Assembly (NCBI GenBank): GCA_021234155.1
Contig: JAJEKV010000060.1
Span: 6,780,323 to 6,844,322, forward strand
Direction of reading: 5' to 3'
DNA: 64,000 nucleotides
DNA from: Isoetes taiwanensis
Taxonomy: Eukaryota > Streptophyta > Lycopodiopsida > Isoetales > Isoetaceae
The translations under genes were made by a program, and so were the position numbers. Positions 8,280-53,685 of the stretch are shown piece after piece. The notes under the pieces are model-generated. The model searched no databases, was not told the DNA's origin, and saw nothing but the letters and a program-made list of their open reading frames with translations. Every line of letters begins with the position of its first letter. Position 1 is the first letter of the stretch.

Positions 8280-9500
8280 TGAATTAAATTGAATTTAATT
8301 TTATTCTCCGTAGCGGCTAGATGGTCTATGGGCCAAACAACAAAGAACAGCCAGCCTATTACTATCCAGGATGAAAAAACCTCTGCTCTGAAGGGTTTTC
8401 AAGGGAGAAACCTTAGCAGTAATAGGCCTAGCGATGAACTATGTGTTTGTACAATTTGTACATGTCAATGTAATGATCGAGGGCACAATTGAGCCCCCAT
8501 GGACCACTGGCAAGCGTAGGATTAATCTAGCTTTTATAGTAGGGTGTCCTTAATAACTCCAAAGCATTGTTATCCCCAAGCTTACTTAAGGAACATGCGT
8601 CTAGATACTATTTGAGATGATTGTGGTCCTCATTGTTATTCACAGTATGCACCCGTGTTTTTGCACATTTCATCTGGAGAGCTAGGTCACTCGTGTCTCC
8701 TTCCAACAGGCTTTAAGACATTGTGGACCCATGGCCATCGTGACAGACGAAGTGTAGAAGGCAGGAGTCTCCTATGCTTATCACTTTTTGACAATATACG
8801 AGGTCACGTTCCAGAGCAGCTCTTTGCAAAGGCAAAAGGCTACTCTTCTACAAAAGAATATGATATGGGACCATAGACTTGGCTCCAAGTGCTTGAGTCA
8901 GAATGGCCTTATGTACTTGTTCCACCCCAAGTGGTAATTCATATTACTGGTCACCATACTTCTACTCCATATAGAACTACCGGTTCTACCAAAAGGAGTG
9001 ACTGATGTAACCAATTGTAAATCTCTGCTCTGTGTTAGTTATTTTGCATTATATAGAAAGCCTTCCAACGTGTCATCACATAATACATGTATCCTAATAT
9101 GTGGTAGTAATGAACACCACTCCCAGGTACTAATTGTATGTTTGCAACACTTCCACACTTTGACCTTGGTAAGTGAAGTGAGGTTGTATATACCTCAAGC
9201 ATGAGACCAGGAGAACCTCAGTTTTGGCCAAATTGAAGTGCATTCTGGTGGTTTAATAGAAAGCGCCCAAGGCACCTAGATGCTATTGCATACTCGCTGG
9301 GGTGTAGGCTAAAGGGTCCACGCCATCCATGTTTATTAGCTTTCGGATGTCCTAATGAGCGCCCCCCTCGGGGGGGGAGGGGGGGACCACCTTCATCTTG
9401 CGTAAATCAATCCTCAAACTGATCAAATGTACAAACCCAAATAGAGTAGGAGAGACCAGGCACCTTTATCACACTCCAATACTATTAATAACCCTTTCTA
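8280..9500 (-). mobile_element. Decayed LINE, family 1 (3' half), minus strand
   Basis: Read on the minus strand, this segment follows the same order as the better-preserved LINE at 29634-31631. It has an RT/thumb region matching 31140-31440 (for example the GTTTTGGCCAA segment near 9215), the connector region near 8700-8760 matching 30630-30690, and the 3' UTR near 8290-8430 with the GGTTTTTTCATCC and CTAAGGTTTCTCCC segments. The 3' terminus retains CCCATAGACCA and then a degraded A/T tail at 8280-8300. Reading frames are broken throughout. It is a 5'-truncated, inactive copy. Confidence 0.75.
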
Positions 9501-17093: not shown

Positions 17094-17730
17094 GTGGATA
17101 TTTTGTTGAGATACAGGATGGCAGTAAACAAGAACAAAACTAAGATAATGGTTGTTGGCTCTCGCGGAACAGTAGACATGTCACTGGATGGGAAGATTTT
17201 AGATCAAGTTAAGCAATATAAGTATCTTGGGATTGAATTTACTAATGACTATAATTGGAATGTTAGAGTTAGTAAGCGTCGCAGGTGGGCTATGGGCATT
17301 ATATCAGACATTTAATATTTGGAGACATACACATATCCAACAATGGTCACTTCGCAATCTTATGTATAAGGTTATGGTTCAGACAGTCATGTTGTATGGA
17401 TGCCCAGTTTGGGCACCTGGTTTATCTAGAGTCAAGTTGCGTGAAATTGAACAAGTGCAAAAGCGATTTCTACTTGAAGAATTAGGGGCTAAACCACAGA
17501 CTCCGTATGAAATGGTACTAGCTGACGTTGGTATGTATCCTTTAGAGATAGAGGCTCTATATTACACCTTCCTATATCTTCTAAGAATCCGAAAGATGGA
17601 TGTGCAATGCCTACCAACCCAAGCTCTGCAAGAGACTTGCAATCAAAAACATGATGGATGGTATAAGCAGCTAGCTCGATGGGCAGAGTTTTGGAAGGCA
17701 AAATTTCCAGCTCAAAAAAAATCGCCAACG
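17094..17730 (+). pseudogene. LINE ORF2, left part (RT thumb region), family 2
   Basis: The frame starting at 17094 reads NKNKTKIMVV, then QYKYLGIEF, the classic end of the palm and start of the thumb of LINE reverse transcriptases. After a frame change, 17227-17736 continues through the connector (MVQTVMLYGCPVW, then LREIEQVQKRFLLEE). The reading then stops at a foreign insert whose first bases follow 17737. The same protein resumes at 20703 in a compatible phase: the codons at 17731-17736 (AAA TTT) recur at 20697-20702 and lead into TGG GGT. The element is 5'-truncated, with no endonuclease domain or YADD motif to its left. Confidence 0.8.
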
Positions 17731-17752
17731 AAATTTTGAAGACCTTGAAATT
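17731..17752 (+). repeat. Left inverted repeat of the Crypton-like element
   Basis: Pairs perfectly over 22 bases with 20681-20702. The outer six bases (AAATTT) are self-complementary, so they may be target sequence rather than element. The core is GAAGACCTTGAAATT. Confidence 0.85.
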
Positions 17753-17768
17753 TTGTCGACGTGGCACC

Positions 17769-17788
17769 CACGTGTCATAACTATAAAA
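17769..17788 (+). promoter_or_regulatory. G-box and TATA box of the recombinase gene
   Basis: CACGTG (17769-17774) is followed after seven bases by TATAAAA (17782-17788), inside the element and about 390 bp upstream of the first recombinase exon. Downstream are a duplicated CTTGGAGCGCCAT segment (about 17907 and 17934) and a plausible 5'-UTR intron (GT at 18065, AG at 18131). Function is inferred from motif and position only. Confidence 0.5.
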
Positions 17789-18180
17789 GAATATTTTTTC
17801 TCATCTTGGACCTTCTCTGCCGCGTAACTTTCGATCCAGCATGTTGTCGGAGGTGAAATGTGGCTCTTTTCTGTCGTAGATCTGGTTCTAATCGGCATGG
17901 CGGCTTGGAGCGCCATAATCTCTTAGGTTAGCGCCTTGGAGCGCCATTTTTTCTTGGTTCTTGTGAGTTGTGGAGGCATTTTCAGTAATCTTGACATTCT
18001 GTGGAGCTTTTTTGGCAATCTTCTTCCATTTCCACCGAGTTAGTGCTGCTGGACTTGCATGCAGGTGATTCTGCCTTTCCATTAGTTAGTCTTTCAAATT
18101 TTATTCTTTTCTAACGTTTCTTTTCTCGCAGATTCGCCTTTCTGAAGAAATAGTGGAGTAAGATCACCTATCTTGAAGAA

Positions 18181-20391
18181 ATGGCTGCAATGAAGTGCTT
18201 TATTGTTTTATTTTCTGTGTTTTATAGCATGGACGTATGTGCAAGTGGTTTGGACCCTAGTTTTGAGCTAAATGCAACTCAGGAAGCTTGTGGGGTTAAT
18301 CTTTTACCTGTTGTTGCATCTGAATCTGTGGATGATGCCTTTGAAGATATCGACGGTCTGTTGAATAAATTTCAAGGCCCAGAACTTGATAACTTTGTTG
18401 CAGAAATCCAGAATGAGTCCTGGTTTCAAGAAGATCAAGCTGATGATGATAAAGGATGAGTTCTTGGCTTTGGACCCGAATCTGATCAAAGAGGCAGAAG
18501 GGGGAGGCAGGGATGGCTCTAAAGGGCTCACTAAATGGGCTAGAAGGAGGTTTGATAGTTGGAGATCATGGTTTATGTTTGATTACAGGATACCCATTGA
18601 AGAGATTCCTGCGGTTGAAATGGATGACATGCTCATGAAGTTTATGCTGCAGATCAAGAAAAAGAACAAGGAGGTTTATCCACCAGGAAGGTACTGTAAT
18701 TTGTTTAAGTTGTTTAATTTGTTAAGTTGTTTAAGTTTTTAGGTTCAGCTTTCTGTTAGGATTTAGGATAGTTTATCTCATAGATTATTTGGTTTTTTGC
18801 AGTCTTAGTGTATTGTATAGGACATTTGGCAGGATTTTAAGAAAGAAACAAGAGGTTAGAGTTGGTCAGACTAGTATCGAGGAGCGTCCATTCAATATCT
18901 TAAAGTCTGATGTCTTTAAAAAAAGTACATATGCCTTTGTAGTAGCTGTTAGAAGATCCAGGTTACTTGGAGTTAAGGGGAAGAAGAAGAAAGCACCTGT
19001 TATTCCCTTCAGTGTCGAGAATGACCTGCTCGCAAGTGTTGATCATCAAATTTACCATCCTAGGGGTGGTAAAAAACGTCTTTGCTTTTATATCTGTAGC
19101 AGGTTTGGGATCAGGGCAATTAAGGAGATTTGGAATTTAAAGGTGTATCAATTTTCCTTGGAGATTAGTGAGAGTGGCAAGTTTGTGAAATACGAGGAAG
19201 CATGCAGCAAGAATTATAATCCTTCTGCTACGCGTTTTGAAGACCATCATTTTAGGGATCCAGTGTGGAGTTATGAGGAAGATTTCGTCTTTACCTACAA
19301 ACAGTATGTGAGACATTTACCTTTAAGGCAATTTGGGGCTGAGGATAAGACGGAGGGTGCACTATTCTTGACTGCGATCGATAACGCGTGCAGTAATGTA
19401 AGTTGTGGTTTGATTTGTCTTTTTGTTTTTTTTGCTTTAGATCTTTACTTGTTAGATCTTTAATAAGCTTGTTATATTTTTTCTGTTTTAGGTTCGGTAC
19501 CATAAGCAAAGGGTTGGCACAAATCAGGTTACGAAATGGCTTAAAGTGATGGGTCGGACTGTTAATGCATGCAAATCTGGACGGGTGACTTTGGTGACGC
19601 GATTGGCATTGGCTGGTGTGCCAGCTGAAGTGGGGATGCAGGTTACACGTCATAACACGCTTGACGGCTATCGCAAGTAAGGTTTTCTCCCTTTTTATCA
19701 TTTTCTTTATTATTGTTAGGTAAAGTATCTTTGTCTGTAGTTAGATATGACAGGAGCAAAGAAGTTCAAGTCGACACAGCTATGTCTATTCTATCGAAGC
19801 CTATTGATGATAATGGGAAGCTTCAAGTGTATAACGAGGTCCTTGGCGAGCAAATGAATAGTAAGCGGAAGGTCTTATTTGGAGTGCAGGACGATCGTAC
19901 TCCAAATGGGCTTGTTGTTCCTAAGCAGGTACTGTGAAGATTTTTTATTGAAGCAATCTTTTTTCATTCAATATTTATAGTTTAATGTTGTCTAGCAGGT
20001 TCTTGTGTCATCTTCAACTGTCGCTGGTATGAATTCTGAAGATAATGGTGCTATAGAAGGCGAATGTTCTATCAAGTGCGAAGAACAGGTAATGTTATTT
20101 AATTGATTTTCAATTTTCAATCAGTTTCTGGTTTTTAATGTGTCGTTGTTTCAGGTTGTTTGTTTGGCTGGGAAAGAGAATATGGAGTTAGCGGAGAAGG
20201 ATAAGCAGATACAGGATGAATTTGATTTTATTGACGAAGGTATTGTGAATGAGTTGATGAGGGCAGATCCTCTGACAAGAAAAGCATTACAGGGCGGACA
20301 TTATAATGTCACGAAGGGGAATTCAGTTAGTAACGCAAGTGGGCAGAATTTCATTGGCGCTACCTTCTGGTTGTGTGTTTGTTACCTGTGA
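18181..20391 (+). CDS. Crypton/DUF3504-like tyrosine recombinase, six exons, one frameshift
   Basis: Exons: 18181-18690, 18803-19397, 19492-19676, 19745-19928, 19999-20088, 20155-20391. All introns are GT-AG and every junction is in phase. The spliced length is 1801 nt, one over a multiple of three, matching a single frame change near 18440-18460 in exon 1. The product of about 600 residues begins acidic (to about residue 90). Then comes a SAM-like N-terminal DNA-binding region (WARRRFDSWRSWF) and YPPGSLSVLYRTFGRIL across the first intron. The catalytic half follows: RFGIRAIKEIW carries the first Arg in the F-G-x-R context of DUF3504 proteins, exon 3 carries KSGRVT (second Arg, with Lys where HxxR usually has His), and TRHNTLDGYRKYD carries the His and the Tyr nucleophile candidates. 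The last exons are acidic and unmatched. It would cut and rejoin element ends through a Tyr-DNA link. The frameshift suggests this copy is inactive unless it is a sequencing error. Confidence 0.7.
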
Positions 20392-20399
20392 CAATCCTA

Positions 20400-20600
20400 G
20401 CAGAGTTTCTAATCTTCTGAAGAACTTGCACAGCAGTTGAACTGAATTTTCTGTTGAACTGAATTTTCTGGAAGGTTTTCAAAATTTCTGTTGACTAATG
20501 TTGAACTGAAGTTTCTGGAAGGTTTTCAATGTGCAATGTGCAATGTTTTCTGTAATTTTGTGCAATGTGCAATGTTATCAATGTCTTAGGTTTGATAAGA
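20400..20600 (+). repeat. Short direct repeats in the 3' region of the Crypton-like element
   Basis: TTGAACTGAATTTTCTG occurs twice in tandem near 20437-20471, with a third variant near 20500 followed by the same GGAAGGTTTTCAA seen near 20472. GTGCAATGTGCAATGTT is duplicated near 20530 and 20560. These lie between the stop codon and the right terminus and may be slippage products or part of the end structure. Confidence 0.7.
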
Positions 20601-20613
20601 TTAAGCTGAAAGT

Positions 20614-20702
20614 GACCTTGAAAATCAAGTGAAAATGACCTTGAAATTTCAGGTTATAAAAACAAGACGATTAACCCTATAATTTCAAGGTCTTCAAAAT
20701 TT
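20614..20702 (-). repeat. Right end: inverted repeat and subterminal copies
   Basis: The terminal copy (20681-20702) is the reverse complement of 17731-17752. Two further GACCTTGAAA copies in the opposite orientation start at 20614 and 20638. The second, with the terminal copy, forms a 12-bp perfect stem around a loop of about 31 bases. Direct plus inverted copies at one end are what one expects of recombinase binding sites. Confidence 0.8.
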
Positions 20703-21268
20703 TGGGGTATTCATCTAGACCTTCCCGAAGAAGAGATTGCGGTTAAAGCCCTTGTGCTTGAAAAGGCGATAGAAAAATGTAGTCGGTTGGTGAGTTGGGG
20801 GTCAAACGAAATTTTTACAAAAGTGAAATCAATGCCATGGTAGTTTACACTAAGCAGGCATACCTTAATGAAGTGCATTTCAGCTCACATAGGTTGGAGA
20901 TCGAGGTAGGCCGAGAAAATGGCACACCGCATGCTTTGCGGTTTTGTCCATGTTGCATGATAGGACAGGTGGAAGATGAGCAACACACTTTGTTATTATG
21001 TCCTCTTTTTGACCATGTACGGGATCACTACAGTATCTTTGCTAGATCACTTCGTGAACTTTTGATAATACCTTCCCCTATGTTAGGTGTATACCTTTCT
21101 GCCTATTGGCAATCTCGGACAGAATTGCTCCAACTTTATCAGATAACCGTTGAGCTTGAAACGGAATGCTCTGCTTAGAAACACATTTATTTCTATGATG
21201 TTTGTTTCGCCCATGGACCTGAGGGTCTGATCAGGCGTGATCTCAAATAAATAAATAAACAAATATTC
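20703..21268 (+). pseudogene. LINE ORF2, right part, and 3' end, family 2
   Basis: Continuation of the LINE at 17094. The first part (20703-20830) reads WGIHLDLPEEE. The frame from 20795 ends in a Cys/His motif, CPCC followed by EDEQHTLLLCPLFDH, the zinc-knuckle-like C-terminus (CxxC...H...C) of many LINE ORF2 proteins. The related family 1 copies show the same pattern as CQCC...EDECHAL. After the stop near 21178 the 3' UTR has CCCATGGACCTGAGGGTC (a GACC/GGTC stem-loop), then GGCGTGATCTC, then a tail of AAAT units ending near 21268. The tail type differs from family 1 (TATTC units). Confidence 0.8.
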
Positions 21269-22113: not shown

Positions 22114-23350
<1,237 letters not shown>

Positions 23351-29633: not shown

Positions 29634-31631
29634 AATAGAATTGAATAGATTTTTTATCGTCCACGGAGACCAATTGGCCTATGGGACCCAAACAAAAAGA
29701 GAGCAGCAAGCGTATTACTGTCAGAATTAAAAAAACCCCCGCCTCGAAGGGTTTTTGAGGGAAAAACCTTAGCAGTAATAAGCGTGCTGGCATGCTGTAG
29801 AATTGTATAGGACAGTTCAATACCATCCCGGAGGACACGACCGAGTCCGTGCATCCATAACCTCCTAGAGGTATGACCCCAACAAACCCACTGACATCGT
29901 ATTCAATAACTCATGCAGGGCATATGCATGCTACACCCTGCCATTTTTGGAACCTGCCAAAGTACCTGCACTAGGTACTTTTGGATTGGGTACTATTTTC
30001 TTATTCTTTTTGTCAAAACTAATTCAAAAGTTCAATATAAAATGTCAAAAGCATATCAATGTTCAAGGTTACTATTGGAGGCCAAAATGAATGCATTTAA
30101 TTTAACATTTGTAGTTATTGAGATATTATAAAAGTACCCAGTACCCAGTGTTGGGTACTTTTTTAGGTAGTTTTATGGTTCCTAAATGGTACTTTTTTTG
30201 ATACAGTGTAGCATGCTTATGCCCTGCAACGATTGGCCGGGCACTAGTAATCGAACATACCGCTCTCGGATCTGGAGGGCATGACATTCATCCTCAATGG
30301 CGCCCTGGTGGCAACACTGGCAAAGCCTTTCCTCCCGTGCTTCCCGAGCCCAACGTCCTGCCTCAATGCGGAGACGATGTGCACCCGTGCGAATGGAAGA
30401 TATAAGTCTGCGCTTCTTAATGGGCAAATGGGTGTACAAGTACTGGTGTGGGCCTCTCATGAGCCTAGGATTGACTTGCTGCTGATAGTGTGCCAGCTTA
30501 ATGTGCGTCAGAGCATCTGCATCCCAAAGCTTGCGAAGGAAAGTAGCATCTAGGTACAGCTTAAGGGCCTTGTGATATTTTTTTGTCCTTACATGTACGC
30601 CCCAGCGTGAGAGCCACTGAGCTTGCTTGTCCTTCCAGCAGGCTTTGAGGCGTTGGGGACCCATCGCCATGGTCAAAGCAAGGTTGGGCAAACGTGTATC
30701 ACCCATAGCGACCACCTTCTGGAAGTAAATGATATGGCGTTCCAATGCAGCCCGTTGAAGGGGTAGAAAACCTGTCTCCTGGAGTAGGATCTGGTATGGA
30801 ACTATGGACTTTACCCCAAGGGCTCGTGCCAAGAAGGCTTTCTGCACCTGCTCGAGGTCATTCCAGGTGTTGAGGGATATCACCGGACCTCATACTTCTG
30901 CCCCATACAAGAGGACAGGCTCGACCAAGGCCCGAAACAAGTGCGACTAGTGGCCCCAGGCATACAACTCTGCCTTGTGGCTGTTGTTCTGCATGGCATA
31001 CAGTGCTTTCCAACCCACGGTGACCCGCAACCTGATGGTAGCATCCCAGTGGGTGGTAACAGAGAACTCGATCCCCAAGTACTTGTAGGTCGAAGCCACC
31101 TCTACATCTTGTCCCTAGTAAGTGAATGAGGGAAGCCTTGGCTGAGGGGATGATGAAACTAGCAGCACCCTAGTTTTGGCCAAGTTAACTCGCATACCAA
31201 TGAATCGGCAAAAAGTGTCAAGAGCATCCAGGTGACGTTGCATGTCCTCTGGGGTATAGGCCAAGAGGTTGACATCATCAGCATATATGAGTTGCCGGAT
31301 TGTGTGATGCATGAGACGGGCGCCTGCACCTCCATGCTCAGAAATCTTCCAGCTGGTCAATGTATAGGCCAAAGAGTGTGGGGGGAGAGGGGGCAACCCT
31401 GACGCACTCCAATACTACTGATTACTGGCTGTCCTGACGATGTGATGCGGCCGGAGCATGCCTCGTATAGCCTATACACTGCATTCTGCAAGTCAAGGGG
31501 GGTCCCCAGCTGCCGCAGTCTGTCTCATAACCTGTCCCGGGGCACTGTGTCGAAAGCTTTTGTGAAATCCATGAAACAACAGTATAGGTTTTGCCGGGTG
31601 ATTCCTGCTATCCTCAATCAATGTGCGCAAG
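29634..31631 (-). mobile_element. 5'-truncated LINE, family 1, inserted in the tandem repeat
   Basis: On the minus strand the element begins within the RT domain: after frame changes one reads a FTKAFD-type motif, then RQGCPLSP, then LIYADDVNLLAYTPEDMQRH (31300-31240) with the YADD active site. Next are the thumb, the connector (NTWNDLEQVQKAFLARALGV, 30870-30810) and the Cys/His tail CQCC...EDECHAL (30290-30260). The 3' UTR (29840-29650) has the CTAAGGTTTTTCCC and CCCATAGGCCAATTGG stem-loop segments, and the tail is AATAG units. The insertion point is exact: an uninterrupted repeat junction at 31868-31876 reads TTGTAG|GAAGAGG, and here TTGTAG ends at 29633 and GAAGAGG resumes at 31632. No clear target duplication remains. 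A MITE is nested within it. Confidence 0.9.
29918..30224. mobile_element. Foldback MITE nested in the LINE, TSD TGCA
   Basis: The 307-bp element begins GGGCATATGCATGCTACAC and ends GTGTAGCATGCTTATGCCC, giving inverted termini of about 20 bases with one or two mismatches. TGCA flanks it on both sides (29914-29917, 30225-30228). The sister LINE copy at 41975-42015 runs straight through this point, confirming the boundaries. Internally it has repeated GTACC/GGTAC segments, so much of it can fold on itself. No coding capacity and no superfamily assigned; the 4-bp duplication does not match the common plant MITE types I know. Confidence 0.88.
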
Positions 31632-32944: not shown

Positions 32945-35900
32945 ATAGATGTATCATAAATGATTTCCTTCCACATAAGTTGCTTTTTTTGGAATGTATG
33001 CTAATTGCGGAAGAGCCCACCAGACAAGCAGTTGTTGTTAACTTCAAAAATTACAACAAGTACAGATGGTCTCTCTGTCAAATTTTGAGCCTTCTATTCA
33101 AGATCCTAAAAAGCATCACATCAAGAGCTCACTCCTAGCCCTTACGAAGTAGAGCCAACTCAATGAGGCATTAACAATGGTAAGTGTATATAATTTTCTA
33201 AGGAAGTGGCATGCACTTCTGCCTGACCTTGTGCCAAACGTTCTGCTGCATAAGTTCTCAATCTTAGTATGTTGCATCTCATATTTATTTCACAAAATCA
33301 GAGTTATGCATAAACAACAAAGTAACCAATATCTCTTCTAGATTAGAGACTCATGTGCCTTACTTCTGGCCACACAAGAAGTGTCAACTTGCGTATTAAT
33401 AATCTCTTACATAGAATTCAACCGACAATAAAAACAAATCACATAGTTTCAAGAGCATATCCATATTTGGCTATTTCCTTTCTGGGTTCGCCATATATCC
33501 CATTTGGTTCGACCTAATGTGTTATATTTGGGCTAACATGATGTGTTACAGGTTCGTCTATTCTAGGAGTTCCTAGGCCTGATGATTTTAGACCAATCTT
33601 TGCTTTTTAGCATTTTTTGTGTCGATTGCATGCCTGGGACTACTGAAAATGAAGCTTTAGATTAATTGGTTGTACTTTGTTCTTAGTGTATGATGAATAC
33701 AATCTAACCTAGTTTGTATTGTCTTATGGCAGGTTGGGTACTTATGTGTCCAGTTCCTTCGCCTGCATTATCTGACATATGAGGCACACAACGTGGTTCT
33801 ATCCAAAAACTTTGATTGGCATCAAAAGGTATAGGCAAGATATTCAACTGCCAGTTATGGACATGGCATCACCAGAAGGTCCACTTCTTCTTTCCTTCTT
33901 TCCATCTCTAATATTACATCTAGAATGACAATAGATTTATTGGTGTTGACCTTCTAAACTGGATTAAAACAAGGACTTGTGCAGCATGTAATTGATTTTT
34001 TTTCCTAAGGCAATGTGTCATCGCATTGATTAGTTTCAGACACTATACTTGATCATAATACATTGTCGAATAATATGCCTTTTTATATTGGTTTGGAAAA
34101 CAATGAAACAGAGGCCCATTGGACGATCATTACTACATGCAAATCGAAGAATGTTGTTATTCATTCTTACGTCTATGATTTATGAGTATTTACGTTATTC
34201 CGCACATGATGCATTGATTTGCATTCTTAAAATTTGGAAAAGCTGTTTAGTCCATTTGTAGTTATAATAGACGAGTTGTGCATTTTACTGCAAACCTACA
34301 TCTTTACACTAAGCAAGAAAGGTGTAAGTGGATAAACGCTAGTATAATTGGTGCCCTTAAATTACTATTAAGTGTTGAAAAGGAAGAACACTTAAGCTAT
34401 TAGATCTGGATAAGAGTGGCAATGTTGATGGCTGCACTGCCTCGTACAGATTCACAGCAAAAACTATGGGGGAAGCAATTTGTCAGATATTATTTATTCC
34501 ATGTCTATTGCTTCGATGCCAAAGACATCATTCATAAGCTTTTAGGATCTCATCTGGAGCTCAAGATAACTTTTTTGAAGTTGTAAGCTCTCAAATGGAA
34601 GAACTTTGCAAAGGTGTATTAGAAATTGGGGCCAGTAGATTTTAATAACATGGAGGCATACATGTTTTTGCAGATCATGATTTGTATATGTGAATAATGA
34701 TGGATTTCTCTTGCTTCAAGCCACCTTTCTGTTTTTTTAAGACCCAGGTGCATGCCTAAATTTAGCCTACTGCATCAAAGGGTTTGCAGTTGGCATAGTT
34801 AGCTGATTGGCATGATGAAAAGGCCAAAGAAACATTTGAAGAGAGGGTTGAATTTGCACAAGCGGACATTTGTTCAGGTAAAAGTCCCCCTTGATTCATT
34901 TGTAGTCAAATTTGCAAGGAGTATTATGGTATCTGGTGACTAAAACCTCCAACTTAAAAGGTATTCAGGAGTATGCAGAAGAATAGAATAGAATAGAATA
35001 GAAGGACATTTTCAATTAGTCCATATATTTCTAGGCCCACCTTTTTTTTTGTTTTCCGCATTATAATTTTGTCCCTAAACGTTGGAGCTCACATGTTTTT
35101 CTAGATACCTTCATGTGGATTGAAATAGACTTGCAAGGATTCAGCCTGGAACATGTTGCCCATGTGGTTATTGTCACATTGTTGATGTTGAAACGCTTCT
35201 TCTTTGCTGAGACTCCAAGCACCAAAGAGTTATGGGTGCTTTCAAACATTTTCCTTTGGCCTTTCAATATATTTTCACTTTTGTAGATCAAATATCTATA
35301 TATACGTTTTGATCTGGCTGTTGATGCAAAGAGCTTGGTATAGAAGGGCCTATGTCGTAATGTATTTGAGTCCATTTTTTTTAATCTTTTATCAATTGTC
35401 ATTTTATGTTAGCAGGTGTATATTTTCTACTGAAGGGCACATTTTTCCATTGATCCCAGAGATTTCTTTGCCCTTAGATCACTGCACATGTTCATTGGGT
35501 TTTTGCAGCAAAAGAGAAGAAAAGACAGGGAGCCAGATGATTGGGATTTTGGCACATATATTTAGTGCTTTTGGCCGTAAGAGCTTCCTTATTTTGTAGA
35601 TTTTGGTAGATATATTTAGTGCTTTTGGCCATGAGAGCTTCTTTATTTTGCAACGTCTTCATGAATTTTCTTTACTAACAACTCAATTGACAATACACAT
35701 GTGAGAAGATGGATGTTTCTAGTCAAAGAAACGTAAACATCTCACTTAGGCTTCCCAGTGATGCATTAGACAAGAGAAGTGATCAAAAGTATGCCACCTA
35801 GAATTGTTGAAACATGAAGGACATGCCTACTTGGCACAGTAAAGTAGCGATAACGGTTTCTGTCTGATTAGAATTTCATATCACATAGATGATATTGGAG

Positions 35901-40964: not shown

Positions 40965-42270
40965 ATCCATGCACATTACAAGCATTACTGTGCTTCATCT
41001 TCATGGTATAGATATAGCCCTAATCCAAATCGAGCACAAGCCCGATGAAATGCCATTCCCTCACTTACCAGGGGCAAGAGGTAGAGGTGGCTCCGACCTA
41101 CAAGTACTTGGGGATTGAGTCCTCAACTACCACCCATTGGGATGCGGCTATCAGGTTGCGGGTCACGGGGGGTTGGAAAGCACTATATGCCATGCAGAAC
41201 AACAACCACAAGGCAGAGTTATATGCCTGGGGCCACCAGTCACATTTGTTTCGGGCCTTGGTTGAGCCGGTCCTTTTGTATGGGGCAGAAGTGTGGGGTC
41301 CGGTGATATCCCTAAACACCTGGAATGACCTCGGCAGTGCGAAGGCCTTCTTGGCACGTGCCACGGGGTGAAGTCCACGATTCCGTACCGGATCCTACTC
41401 CAGGAGATAGGTTTTCTACCCCTTCAACGGGCTGCATTGGAACGCCATATCGTTTACTTCCAAAAGGTGGTCGCTATGGCTGATACACGCTTGCCCCACC
41501 TTGCTTTGGCCACGACGATGGGTCCCCAACGCCTGAAATCCTGCTGGAAAGACAAGCAAGCTCAGTGGTTCTCCGCGGGGGGTGTCGCGGACAAACAGAT
41601 CGTCCTAGTCGGGACAAAGAAAGATCGCGAGGCACTTAAAGCGTACCTAGATGCTACTTTCCTTCATGGCAAGCTCGGGATCTGAGAGGCTATGGCGCCG
41701 CGTTAAGGCGGCACACTATCAGCAGCAAGTCAATCCTAGGCTCACAAGAGGCCCACACCAGTACTTGTACATCCAGCTACCCATGAAGAAGCGCAGACTT
41801 ATAGCTTCCATTCGCACGGGTGCACATCGCCTCCGCATTGAAACATGGCGTTGGGCTCGGGAAGCATGAGAGCAAAGGCTTTGCCAGTGTTGCCACCAGG
41901 GCGCGATTGAGGATGAATGTCATGCCCTCCAGATCTGCCCAGCATTTGCCCATATCCGAGAGCGATATGTTCGATTACTAGTGCCTGGCCAGCCGTTGCA
42001 TCAGTTATTGACTACGGCGTTAGTGGATTTGTTGGGGTCATACCTCCAGGAGGTTATGGATGCACGGACTCGTTTGTGTCCTACGGGACGGTGTACAGTG
42101 TGCCAGCATGCTTATTACTGCTAAGGTTTTTCCCTCGAAAACCCTTCGGGGCGGGGGTTTTTTAATCCTGTCAGTAATATGCTTGCTGCTCTCTTTTTGT
42201 TTGGGTCCCATAGGCCAATTGGTCTCCGTGGACGCTAAAAACCTATTCTATTCTATTCTATTCTATTCTC
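40965..42270 (+). mobile_element. 5'-truncated LINE, family 1, with (TATTC)n tail
   Basis: Begins in the late RT region. From 41045, YKYLGIESS marks the thumb, followed by LLYGAEVWGPVISLNTWND (41270-41330), LQEIGFLPLQRAALERHIVY (about 41400-41460), and near 41750-41900 RTGAHRLRIETWRWAREA with the CQCC Cys/His tail. Frame changes occur near 41340 and 41690. The 3' UTR (42115-42235) has GCTAAGGTTTTTCCCTCG, then CCCATAGGCCAATTGGTC as a stem-loop, and GTGGACGCTAAAAACC. The tail is a clean TATTC array at 42243-42269. This is the best 3' end of the family in the window and lies directly after another copy in the same orientation. Confidence 0.88.
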
Positions 42271-53009: not shown

Positions 53010-53685
53010 CAACATGCCACCTACGATGCACCACATGATTCACCACATGATTCACCAAATGCACCACATGATTCACCACATGCACCATTTGCATTACCAA
53101 ACATGTTGGTCAATGAAAGTCAAACATGTAACAAAGATCATGTAAAGGCTCAAGCATGCCAAGGTGGCTCAAATATGCCACCTAGGTCCAACATGCCAAG
53201 GTGGCTCAAACATGCCACGTAAGCTCCAACATGCCACCTACGATGCACCACATGATTCACCACATGATTCACCAAATGCACCTCATGATTCACCACATGC
53301 ACCATTTGCATCACCAAACATGTTGGTCAATGAAAGTCAAACATGTAACAAAGGTCATGTAAAGGCTCAAGCATGCCAAGGTGGCTCAAATATGCCACCT
53401 AGGCTCCAACATGCCAAGGTGGCTCAAACATGCCACGTAAGCTCCAACATGCCACCTACGATGCACCACATGATTCACCACATGATTCACCAAATGCACC
53501 TCATGATTCACCACATGCACCATTTGCATCACCAAACATGTTGGTCAATGAAAGTCAAACATGCCACGTAAGCTCCAACATGCCACCTACGATTCACCAC
53601 ATGATTCACCACATGGTTCACCAAATGCACCACATGATTCACCACATGCACCATTTGCATCACCACATCTATCACGACATGTAAC
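53010..53685. repeat. 218-bp tandem satellite with CACCACATGATT sub-repeats
   Basis: ACATGCCACCTACGAT starts at about 53013, 53230, 53448 and 53579. The first two periods are 217-218 bases and the last copy is shortened by an internal deletion of about 87 bases. Each unit contains a run of CACCACATGATT and CACCAAATGCAC sub-units and TGCCAAGGTGGCTCAAA segments. Open frames through it on both strands (His/Met/Pro-rich) are products of repetition, not genes. Confidence 0.93.

What the first reader, a model, noticed from the sequence alone, without database searches (positions are those of the whole stretch)
17731..20703. A Crypton-like tyrosine-recombinase element with perfect inverted ends in a plant genome
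Seen: a perfect 22-base inverted repeat bounds a 3-kb insert that splits a LINE, and a six-exon gene inside it encodes the DUF3504/Crypton fold with F-G-x-R, K-S-G-R, T-R-H and Y motifs in order. Established: Cryptons use a tyrosine recombinase and are described, as far as I know, from fungi, oomycetes and animals, without terminal inverted repeats. Inference: this is a plant lineage of recombinase transposon with unusual ends, possibly undescribed.
Basis: partly seen in the sequence, partly recalled or inferred. Interest (0 to 1): 0.88.

Follow-up and report, generated by a model that had tools for sequence, protein, structure and literature searches.

The report
Crypton-like plant transposon with lox-like ends
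A plant genome carries a 3-kb insert that looks like a mobile element: it encodes a phage-integrase-type enzyme, and its two ends look like the two halves of such an enzyme's own recombination site; elements of this broad kind are known from fungi, water moulds and animals.

Summary
A perfect 22-bp inverted repeat (17731-17752/20681-20702) bounds a 2.97-kb insert in a degenerate LINE. Its one recognisable gene (six coding exons, GT-AG introns) encodes a tyrosine recombinase. Pfam, PDB and two large protein searches gave no match, but a profile of 120 animal-type Crypton proteins matches over 321 residues (45.9 bits; best of 1000 shuffles 3.8; hhalign 97%). Arg, Lys, Arg, His and Tyr of the active site are present, with R-23-H-9-Y spacing as in 108 of 120; HxxR reads KSGR, a substitution known in SSV1-type integrases. 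My main addition concerns the ends: the repeat is a 16-bp arm plus a palindromic AAATTT that also repeats directly, so a circle would carry a 16-6-16 lox/FRT-like site. Exact copies of the arm motif GACCTTGAAA lie only in the element's ends (4 in 64 kb). I read the repeat as split attP arms of a Crypton-like element moving through a circle, not as transposase TIRs. The host genome could not be searched (server busy, 20 of 20 attempts), so boundaries and mobility rest on one copy.

The parts
17731..17736 (+). left copy of the AAATTT direct repeat (proposed recombination core / target duplication; reading as 7 bp AAATTTT 17731-17737 or 8 bp AAATTTTG 17731-17738 is also possible)
   Evidence: direct-repeat enumeration; letters rechecked
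17737..17752 (+). left inverted arm TGAAGACCTTGAAATT (16 bp), proposed recombinase-binding half-site
   Evidence: perfect inverted repeat; arms rechecked
18181..18459 (+). upstream acidic ORF (92 aa) in a frame different from exon 1 below; possible N-terminus joined by an intron (e.g. 18235-18403) or separated by a frameshift
18413..18690 (+). coding exon 1 of the tyrosine recombinase gene (from first in-frame ATG)
   Evidence: its last part aligns to the N-terminal part of the Crypton profile
18803..19397 (+). coding exon 2: Arg I (R197, 19113-19115) and beta-Lys (K229, 19209-19211)
   Evidence: the uninterrupted ORF alone scores 15.2 bits
19492..19676 (+). coding exon 3: KSGR (K319 19573-19575, R322 19582-19584) and His (H345 19651-19653)
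   Evidence: the uninterrupted ORF alone scores 13.4 bits
19745..19928 (+). coding exon 4: nucleophile Tyr (Y354, 19746-19748)
19999..20088 (+). coding exon 5, C-terminal extension without known domain
   Evidence: no Pfam family
20155..20391 (+). coding exon 6, C-terminal extension and stop
   Evidence: no Pfam family
20472..20488 (+). imperfect internal copy (15 of 17) of the right half-site plus core, AAGGTTTTCAAAATTTC
20614..20623 (+). extra exact copy of arm motif GACCTTGAAA
   Evidence: 4 exact copies in 64 kb, two being the arms themselves
20637..20646 (+). extra exact copy of arm motif GACCTTGAAA
20681..20696 (-). right inverted arm (AATTTCAAGGTCTTCA on +, 16 bp), proposed half-site
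20697..20702 (+). right copy of the AAATTT direct repeat (AAATTTT if 7 bp to 20703, AAATTTTG if 8 bp to 20704)
17203..17730 (+). left part of the interrupted LINE
   Evidence: tblastx to 31024-30674; no Pfam family of its own
20703..21178 (+). right part of the interrupted LINE (one frame change inside it)
   Evidence: tblastx to 30415-30275; no Pfam family of its own

Best explanation
A Crypton-like DNA transposon whose only recognisable enzyme is a tyrosine recombinase. The recombinase binds the two inverted arms (TGAAGACCTTGAAATT and its complement) and exchanges strands within the AAATTT core that flanks the element on both sides. Excision would join the ends into a circle carrying a 16-6-16 site (arm, core, arm) laid out like loxP or FRT. 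Integration would recombine that site with a matching AT-rich core in new DNA, here inside a LINE, leaving one core copy at each end (attL and attR). Because the core is itself a palindrome, the two half-sites read as one perfect 22-bp 'terminal inverted repeat'. Shown here: the recombinase homology, catalytic residues and spacing, the insertion, the arms, the direct repeat and the extra arm motifs. Inferred: circle, binding, strand exchange and mobility.
For: Profile of 120 animal-type Crypton proteins matches the spliced protein over residues 62-382, 45.9 bits. Among 1000 shuffles, the reverse and 317 window ORFs, nothing but this gene's own unspliced exon ORFs (15.2, 13.4, 6.7 bits) scored above 3.8. 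hhalign 97.0%, 293 columns, 21% identity. R197, K229, R322, H345 and Y354 fall on columns with the same residue in 117, 120, 115, 119 and 118 of 120; R-23-H-9-Y in 108 of 120 (the search pattern itself fixed H-9-Y). KXXR occurs in SSV1-type integrases (PMC8371274 passage). Exact GACCTTGAAA occurs 4 times in 64 kb: in the two arms and twice within 90 bp of the right end. Direct repeat AAATTT next to the arms, none outside the 22-bp repeat. Direct repeats of 6 bp in most fungal Cryptons, and YR sites of two inverted repeats around 6-8 bp, are described by Kojima and Jurka (PMC3212892 passages). attP of phaeoviruses has inverted repeats around a core (PMC13236599 passages).
Against: One copy only; boundaries are not confirmed by a second. 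Because AAATTT is palindromic, the direct repeat is largely implied by the inverted repeat, so it is not independent evidence; other symmetric readings exist (17-bp arm + AATT, 15-bp arm + imperfect 8 bp). The arms (15-16 bp) are longer than the 11-13 bp that Kojima and Jurka call typical. GACCTTGAAA with one mismatch occurs 10 more times in the window, 9 of them outside the element. HxxR is KSGR, and the alignment needs a 5-residue gap just there, so the place of that Lys is not certain. The N-terminal frame is broken or split by an unproven intron. No Pfam family is hit. Kojima and Jurka found no terminal repeats in animal Cryptons, the only group I could compare with. No structure model could be made.
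Confidence: 0.66

Rival explanations
1. A cut-and-paste transposon of the DDE kind (non-autonomous, or a composite like MarCry) that picked up a Crypton recombinase gene; the inverted repeat is a true TIR bound by a DDE transposase encoded elsewhere.
For: Perfect inverted ends are the hallmark of DDE elements; the composite MarCry-1_FO with 16-bp TIRs and TA duplications is a published precedent (PMC3212892 passage). A 6-bp AAATTT duplication with 16-bp TIRs can be read from the same bases.
Against: No transposase domain in the spliced protein or in 20 further ORFs of 50 aa or more in or across the element's edges (only three sub-threshold hits, E 0.06-0.18, to unrelated bacterial families). 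The gene from ATG to stop spans 1979 of 2973 bp. No TA or TTAA at the junctions (sequence). The arm motif recurs in the right subterminal region, though DDE elements can have subterminal repeats too.
Confidence: 0.17
2. A domesticated or decaying recombinase gene, no longer mobile, with the inverted repeat left over from an old insertion.
For: The N-terminal frame changes between 18181-18459 and the main frame; HxxR is KSGR; DUF3504 genes of animals are domesticated Cryptons that lost most catalytic residues (PMC3212892 abstract passage).
Against: Five catalytic positions kept, with the usual spacing; the later exons are open; the ends are still perfect.
Confidence: 0.12
3. Fragment of a larger YR element (DIRS-type retroelement or integrated virus) whose ends happen to carry an inverted repeat.
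For: DIRS elements have inverted terminal repeats (PMC6681497 passage) and a YR, and are known in Viridiplantae (PMC4157794 passage).
Against: No reverse transcriptase, RNase H, methyltransferase or viral domain by Pfam within the 3 kb; the LINE continues on both sides, to within 1 nt of one relative's length and 23 nt of another's, so nothing larger seems to have been inserted.
Confidence: 0.04

Closest known systems
CryptonA (animal Cryptons; DUF3504/KIAA1958-like recombinases, PF12012)
   Same: Tyrosine recombinase as the only recognised enzyme, colinear over about 320 residues, same R-23-H-9-Y spacing. Of the 120 proteins compared, 11 bear an organism name, all marine animals; the rest are from unnamed contigs.
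   Different: 16-25% identity over exon 2 to 34 of them; animal Cryptons have no terminal repeats (PMC3212892 section 8), this has inverted arms and a direct repeat; HxxR is KSGR; five introns in the model; a C-terminal extension of about 150 residues with no known domain; plant host.
CryptonF / CryptonS (fungi, oomycetes, diatom)
   Same: Short direct repeats of 5-6 bp at the ends; proposed circle intermediate (PMC3212892 passages).
   Different: No GCR1_C or C48 peptidase domain found here; the passages read describe no inverted arms for them. Their proteins were not compared.
loxP/Cre, FRT/Flp core sites (layout from recall)
   Same: Two inverted arms around a 6-8 bp core would form at the circle junction (general site layout as given in PMC3212892).
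   Different: Here the site is only inferred, and is split between the two ends of the integrated element; the core is fully palindromic, so it gives no direction; arms 16 bp.
Phaeovirus attP
   Same: Inverted repeats flank a short core in the circular form (PMC13236599 passages).
   Different: Giant virus, CC core, far larger insert.
Tec elements of ciliates
   Same: DNA elements encoding a YR (PMC4157794 passage).
   Different: From recall only: long TIRs, TA duplications and a DDE transposase besides the YR; none seen here.

Membership tests
Crypton | Encodes a tyrosine recombinase as its transposition enzyme and no other | tested here: met
   Profile match 45.9 bits against at most 3.8 in 1000 shuffles; no other Pfam domain above threshold in the gene or in 20 further ORFs
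Crypton | Catalytic R-H-R-Y tetrad | tested here: inconclusive
   Both Arg and the Tyr conserved, plus a Lys and the second His; the His of HxxR reads Lys, KSGR, with an alignment gap beside it; KXXR is the motif of SSV1-type integrases
Crypton | Short terminal direct repeats (4-6 bp) | tested here: inconclusive
   AAATTT repeats directly at both ends, but the palindrome makes the repeat length ambiguous and there is one copy
Crypton | No terminal inverted repeats | tested here: not met
   Perfect inverted arms are present; Cryptons are described as lacking TIRs (PMC3212892 passage)
Crypton | Phylogenetic placement within CryptonF, S, A or I | not tested
   Only animal-type sequences were gathered; no tree was made
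DUF3504 (PF12012) | Match above the Pfam gathering score | tested here: not met
   0 Pfam families up to E 10, while P0011 and P0041 score 53.8 and 49.9 bits
DDE cut-and-paste transposon | DDE transposase in the element | tested here: not met
   No transposase domain. A non-autonomous element cannot be excluded
DDE cut-and-paste transposon | Target-site duplication next to the TIR | tested here: inconclusive
   None outside the 22-bp repeat; AAATTT inside it could be read as one
DIRS-type YR retroelement | Reverse transcriptase and RNase H besides the YR | tested here: not met
   No such domain in the spliced protein and 20 further ORFs

The most novel reading that the evidence does not exclude
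A land-plant lineage of tyrosine-recombinase DNA transposons, distinct from the four Crypton groups, that carries its complete core recombination site split across its ends: core-arm at one end, arm-core at the other, with a palindromic core. It transposes through a circle at AT-rich targets and looks like a TIR element, so annotation pipelines would file its kin under unknown TIR elements or MITEs.
Probability: 0.5. Interest if true: 0.78.

Novelty: new variant of a known kind. Interest (0 to 1): 0.63.

Why it matters
The main survey tabulates Cryptons from fungi, animals and stramenopiles (PMC3212892 section 5) and says their boundaries are hard to define. A plant element whose ends spell out a lox-like site would extend the host range, and would give a directly testable substrate for how such recombinases find their ends, and a candidate new recombinase/site pair for genome work. 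It also warns that a perfect terminal inverted repeat need not mean a DDE transposase.

Tried and rejected
Searches without result: Pfam with the spliced protein, its upstream ORF and two pieces of it; PDB; two searches of 5.8 billion proteins, which given their word filter exclude only fairly close relatives; phage records by tblastn; viral contigs with exon 2 (7 pattern matches, none a relative); PHROGs (one weak match of unknown function, E 0.07). A second copy in the window was sought by blastn and tblastn and not found.

Rejected: that the 22-bp repeat is the outer boundary with a target duplication beyond it (no repeat there); that the 8-bp repeat AAATTTTG proves a hAT-type duplication (the two ends would then not be symmetric). 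No tree was made: only animal-type Cryptons were at hand.

Literature: ten full-text searches were run; nine concerned Cryptons or DUF3504, one the KXXR motif. In the titles and abstract openings listed I saw no report of a Crypton in a land plant; I did not open most of the papers, one search showed 25 of 3,511 and one search showed 15 of 31, and only open-licence papers are held. So this is weak evidence. One plant review names Crypton as a DNA-transposon subclass and calls them rare in eukaryotes, without a plant example in the passages shown (PMC11630846). Read: sections 5 and 8 and passages of PMC3212892; passages only of PMC11630846, PMC8371274, PMC13236599, PMC3627910, PMC4157794 and PMC6681497. 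That Cryptons have been annotated in green algae (Chlamydomonas) is my recollection; the paper I looked up for it is not held.
Full report
What is there. The window holds a perfect 22-bp inverted repeat at 17731-17752 and 20681-20702. The stretch between interrupts a LINE-like sequence. Relatives of that sequence elsewhere in the window match its left flank (30.7-31.1 kb, 41.1-41.5 kb, 8.8-9.0 kb) and, in two of these three cases, its right flank. The flanks and the 30-kb relative's main ORF match no Pfam family themselves; the ORF just upstream of that relative (31115-31414, minus strand) matches reverse transcriptase RVT_1 at 32.3 bits, above its cut-off, which supports the LINE label. Keeping one AAATTTT copy, 257 nt separate the aligned blocks of the split copy against 258 in the 30-kb relative; for the 41-kb relative the figures are 335 and 358 (my arithmetic), so one of the two has indels. 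No loss of LINE sequence is evident. A hevamine-like class III chitinase 1.5 kb away (22230-23342, minus strand; GH18 and chitin-binding domains; 349 bits to hevamine) makes a plant host likely; the species was not determined.

The gene. Six coding exons with GT-AG introns of 66-112 bp keep one frame from the ATG at 18413 to the stop at 20389-20391, 522 residues. Introns are 24-28% GC and 47-60% T; codon positions have GC of 0.48, 0.36 and 0.44. An acidic ORF directly upstream (18181-18459; 19 Asp/Glu and 3 Lys/Arg in 92) is in another frame; one search lists many GT-AG introns that would join the two, and a frameshift is as likely. I leave that open.

The protein. Pfam found no family, PDB no chain, and two searches of the large protein set no relative. 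With a Crypton-type query recalled from memory I gathered 120 database proteins (694 passed, the best 120 were listed), most with a precomputed DUF3504 domain; 11 bear an organism name, all marine animals. A profile of all 120 matched the spliced plant protein at 45.9 bits over residues 62-382. Of 1000 shuffles the best reached 3.8 bits; of 317 ORFs of 60 aa or more, the top three were this gene's own unspliced exon ORFs at 15.2, 13.4 and 6.7 bits, so the match does not depend on my splicing. hhalign gave 97.0% over 293 columns. A profile of 20 of the 120 reaches solved tyrosine recombinases only weakly (XerA, E 0.0025), so the link to solved folds is by motif and by the precomputed Phage_integrase hits of the Cryptons.

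Active site. Aligned to the 120, the plant protein has R197 (R in 117), K229 (K in 120), R322 (R in 115), H345 (H in 119) and Y354 (Y in 118). R322 to H345 is 23 residues and H345 to Y354 is 9, as in 108 of the 120; three others had R-H spacings of 24 or 19, and 9 did not fit the search pattern, which itself fixed H-9-Y. The His of HxxR is not there: the sequence reads K-S-G-R. The aligners put a 5-residue gap between the Lys and SGR, so that the Lys takes the place of that His is my reading. SSV1-type integrases have R...KXXR...Y (PMC8371274 passage), so the change need not mean loss of activity.

The ends. Outside the 22-bp repeat there is no direct repeat. Inside it there is: AAATTT(T)(G) at 17731 and at 20697. 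Symmetric readings are a 16-bp arm with a 6-bp repeat AAATTT, a 17-bp arm with AATT, or a 15-bp arm with an imperfect 8-bp repeat. The first is perfect, falls in the 6-8 bp range of tyrosine-recombinase cores, and equals the 6-bp terminal repeats of most fungal Cryptons (PMC3212892 passages); the arms are longer than the 11-13 bp called typical there. Joined end to end, the element would show AATTTCAAGGTCTTCA-AAATTT-TGAAGACCTTGAAATT, a lox/FRT-like layout. The caveat is real: AAATTT is its own complement, so a perfect inverted repeat containing it gives the direct repeat almost for free. Independent support comes from the arm motif: GACCTTGAAA occurs exactly four times in 64 kb, at 17741 and 20683 (minus) in the arms and at 20614 and 20637 nearby; with one mismatch it occurs 10 more times, once inside the element (18370) and 9 times outside. 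A 15-of-17 copy of the right half-site plus core lies at 20472. Clustered extra sites near one end would suit accessory recombinase binding; that is inference.

How it most likely works. Recombinase on the two arms, strand exchange in the AT core, circle, reintegration into a matching core. The parts are shown; the steps are inferred by analogy with Cryptons (circle model quoted in PMC3212892) and with phaeovirus attP sites, where inverted repeats flank a core (PMC13236599 passages).

Membership. It works like a Crypton but fails one descriptive feature, the absence of inverted terminal repeats, and misses the DUF3504 model, so I call it Crypton-like and do not assign it to CryptonA, F, S or I. 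The 2011 survey lists Cryptons in fungi, animals, oomycetes and a diatom and reports no terminal repeats in animal Cryptons. A later paper states that transposons using YR lack TIRs and make no duplications (PMC3627910 passage). The listings of my searches of open-licence papers showed no land-plant Crypton report, which is weak evidence of absence.

Other genes. Twenty further ORFs of 50 aa or more in the element or across its edges match no Pfam family above its cut-off (10 with no hit; 10, of which three gave E 0.06-0.18 to PapC_C, LPAM_MltD and FlK, which I take as chance).

Limits. One copy; no second copy, empty site, transcript or structure. The host genome could not be searched in 20 attempts. 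If further copies share these ends, interest rises; if they show a DDE transposase, the recombinase becomes a passenger.

Noticed in passing
window 22230-23342 (-): Apparently intronless class III (GH18) chitinase with an N-terminal chitin-binding domain; PDB best match hevamine.
   Followed up: partly
window 30182-31414 (-), 41060-41968 (+), 8758-8995 (-): Further degenerate LINE-like fragments related to the one split by the element (tblastx pieces 29-52% identical); the ORF at 31115-31414 matches RVT_1.
   Followed up: partly
window 20436-20580: Short direct repeats in the element's 3' region: TGTTGAACTGAATTTTCTGGAAGGTTTTCAA (two copies, 97%) and TGTGCAATGTGCAATGTTTTC (two copies, 95%), beside an imperfect copy of the right half-site.
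   Followed up: no
window 17748-17755: A second AAATTTTG just inside the left arm, so that GAAATTTTGnnGAC occurs twice 17 bp apart.
   Followed up: no
window 34980-35003 and 42246-42269: AGAAT-type simple repeats in inverted orientation, the only other perfect inverted repeats of 16 nt or more in the scan.
   Followed up: no
window 53146-53571: ORF whose translation is internally repetitive (HAKVAQ-C, QGGSNMP and HDSPH-like units), suggesting a tandem-repeat array; not analysed.
   Followed up: no
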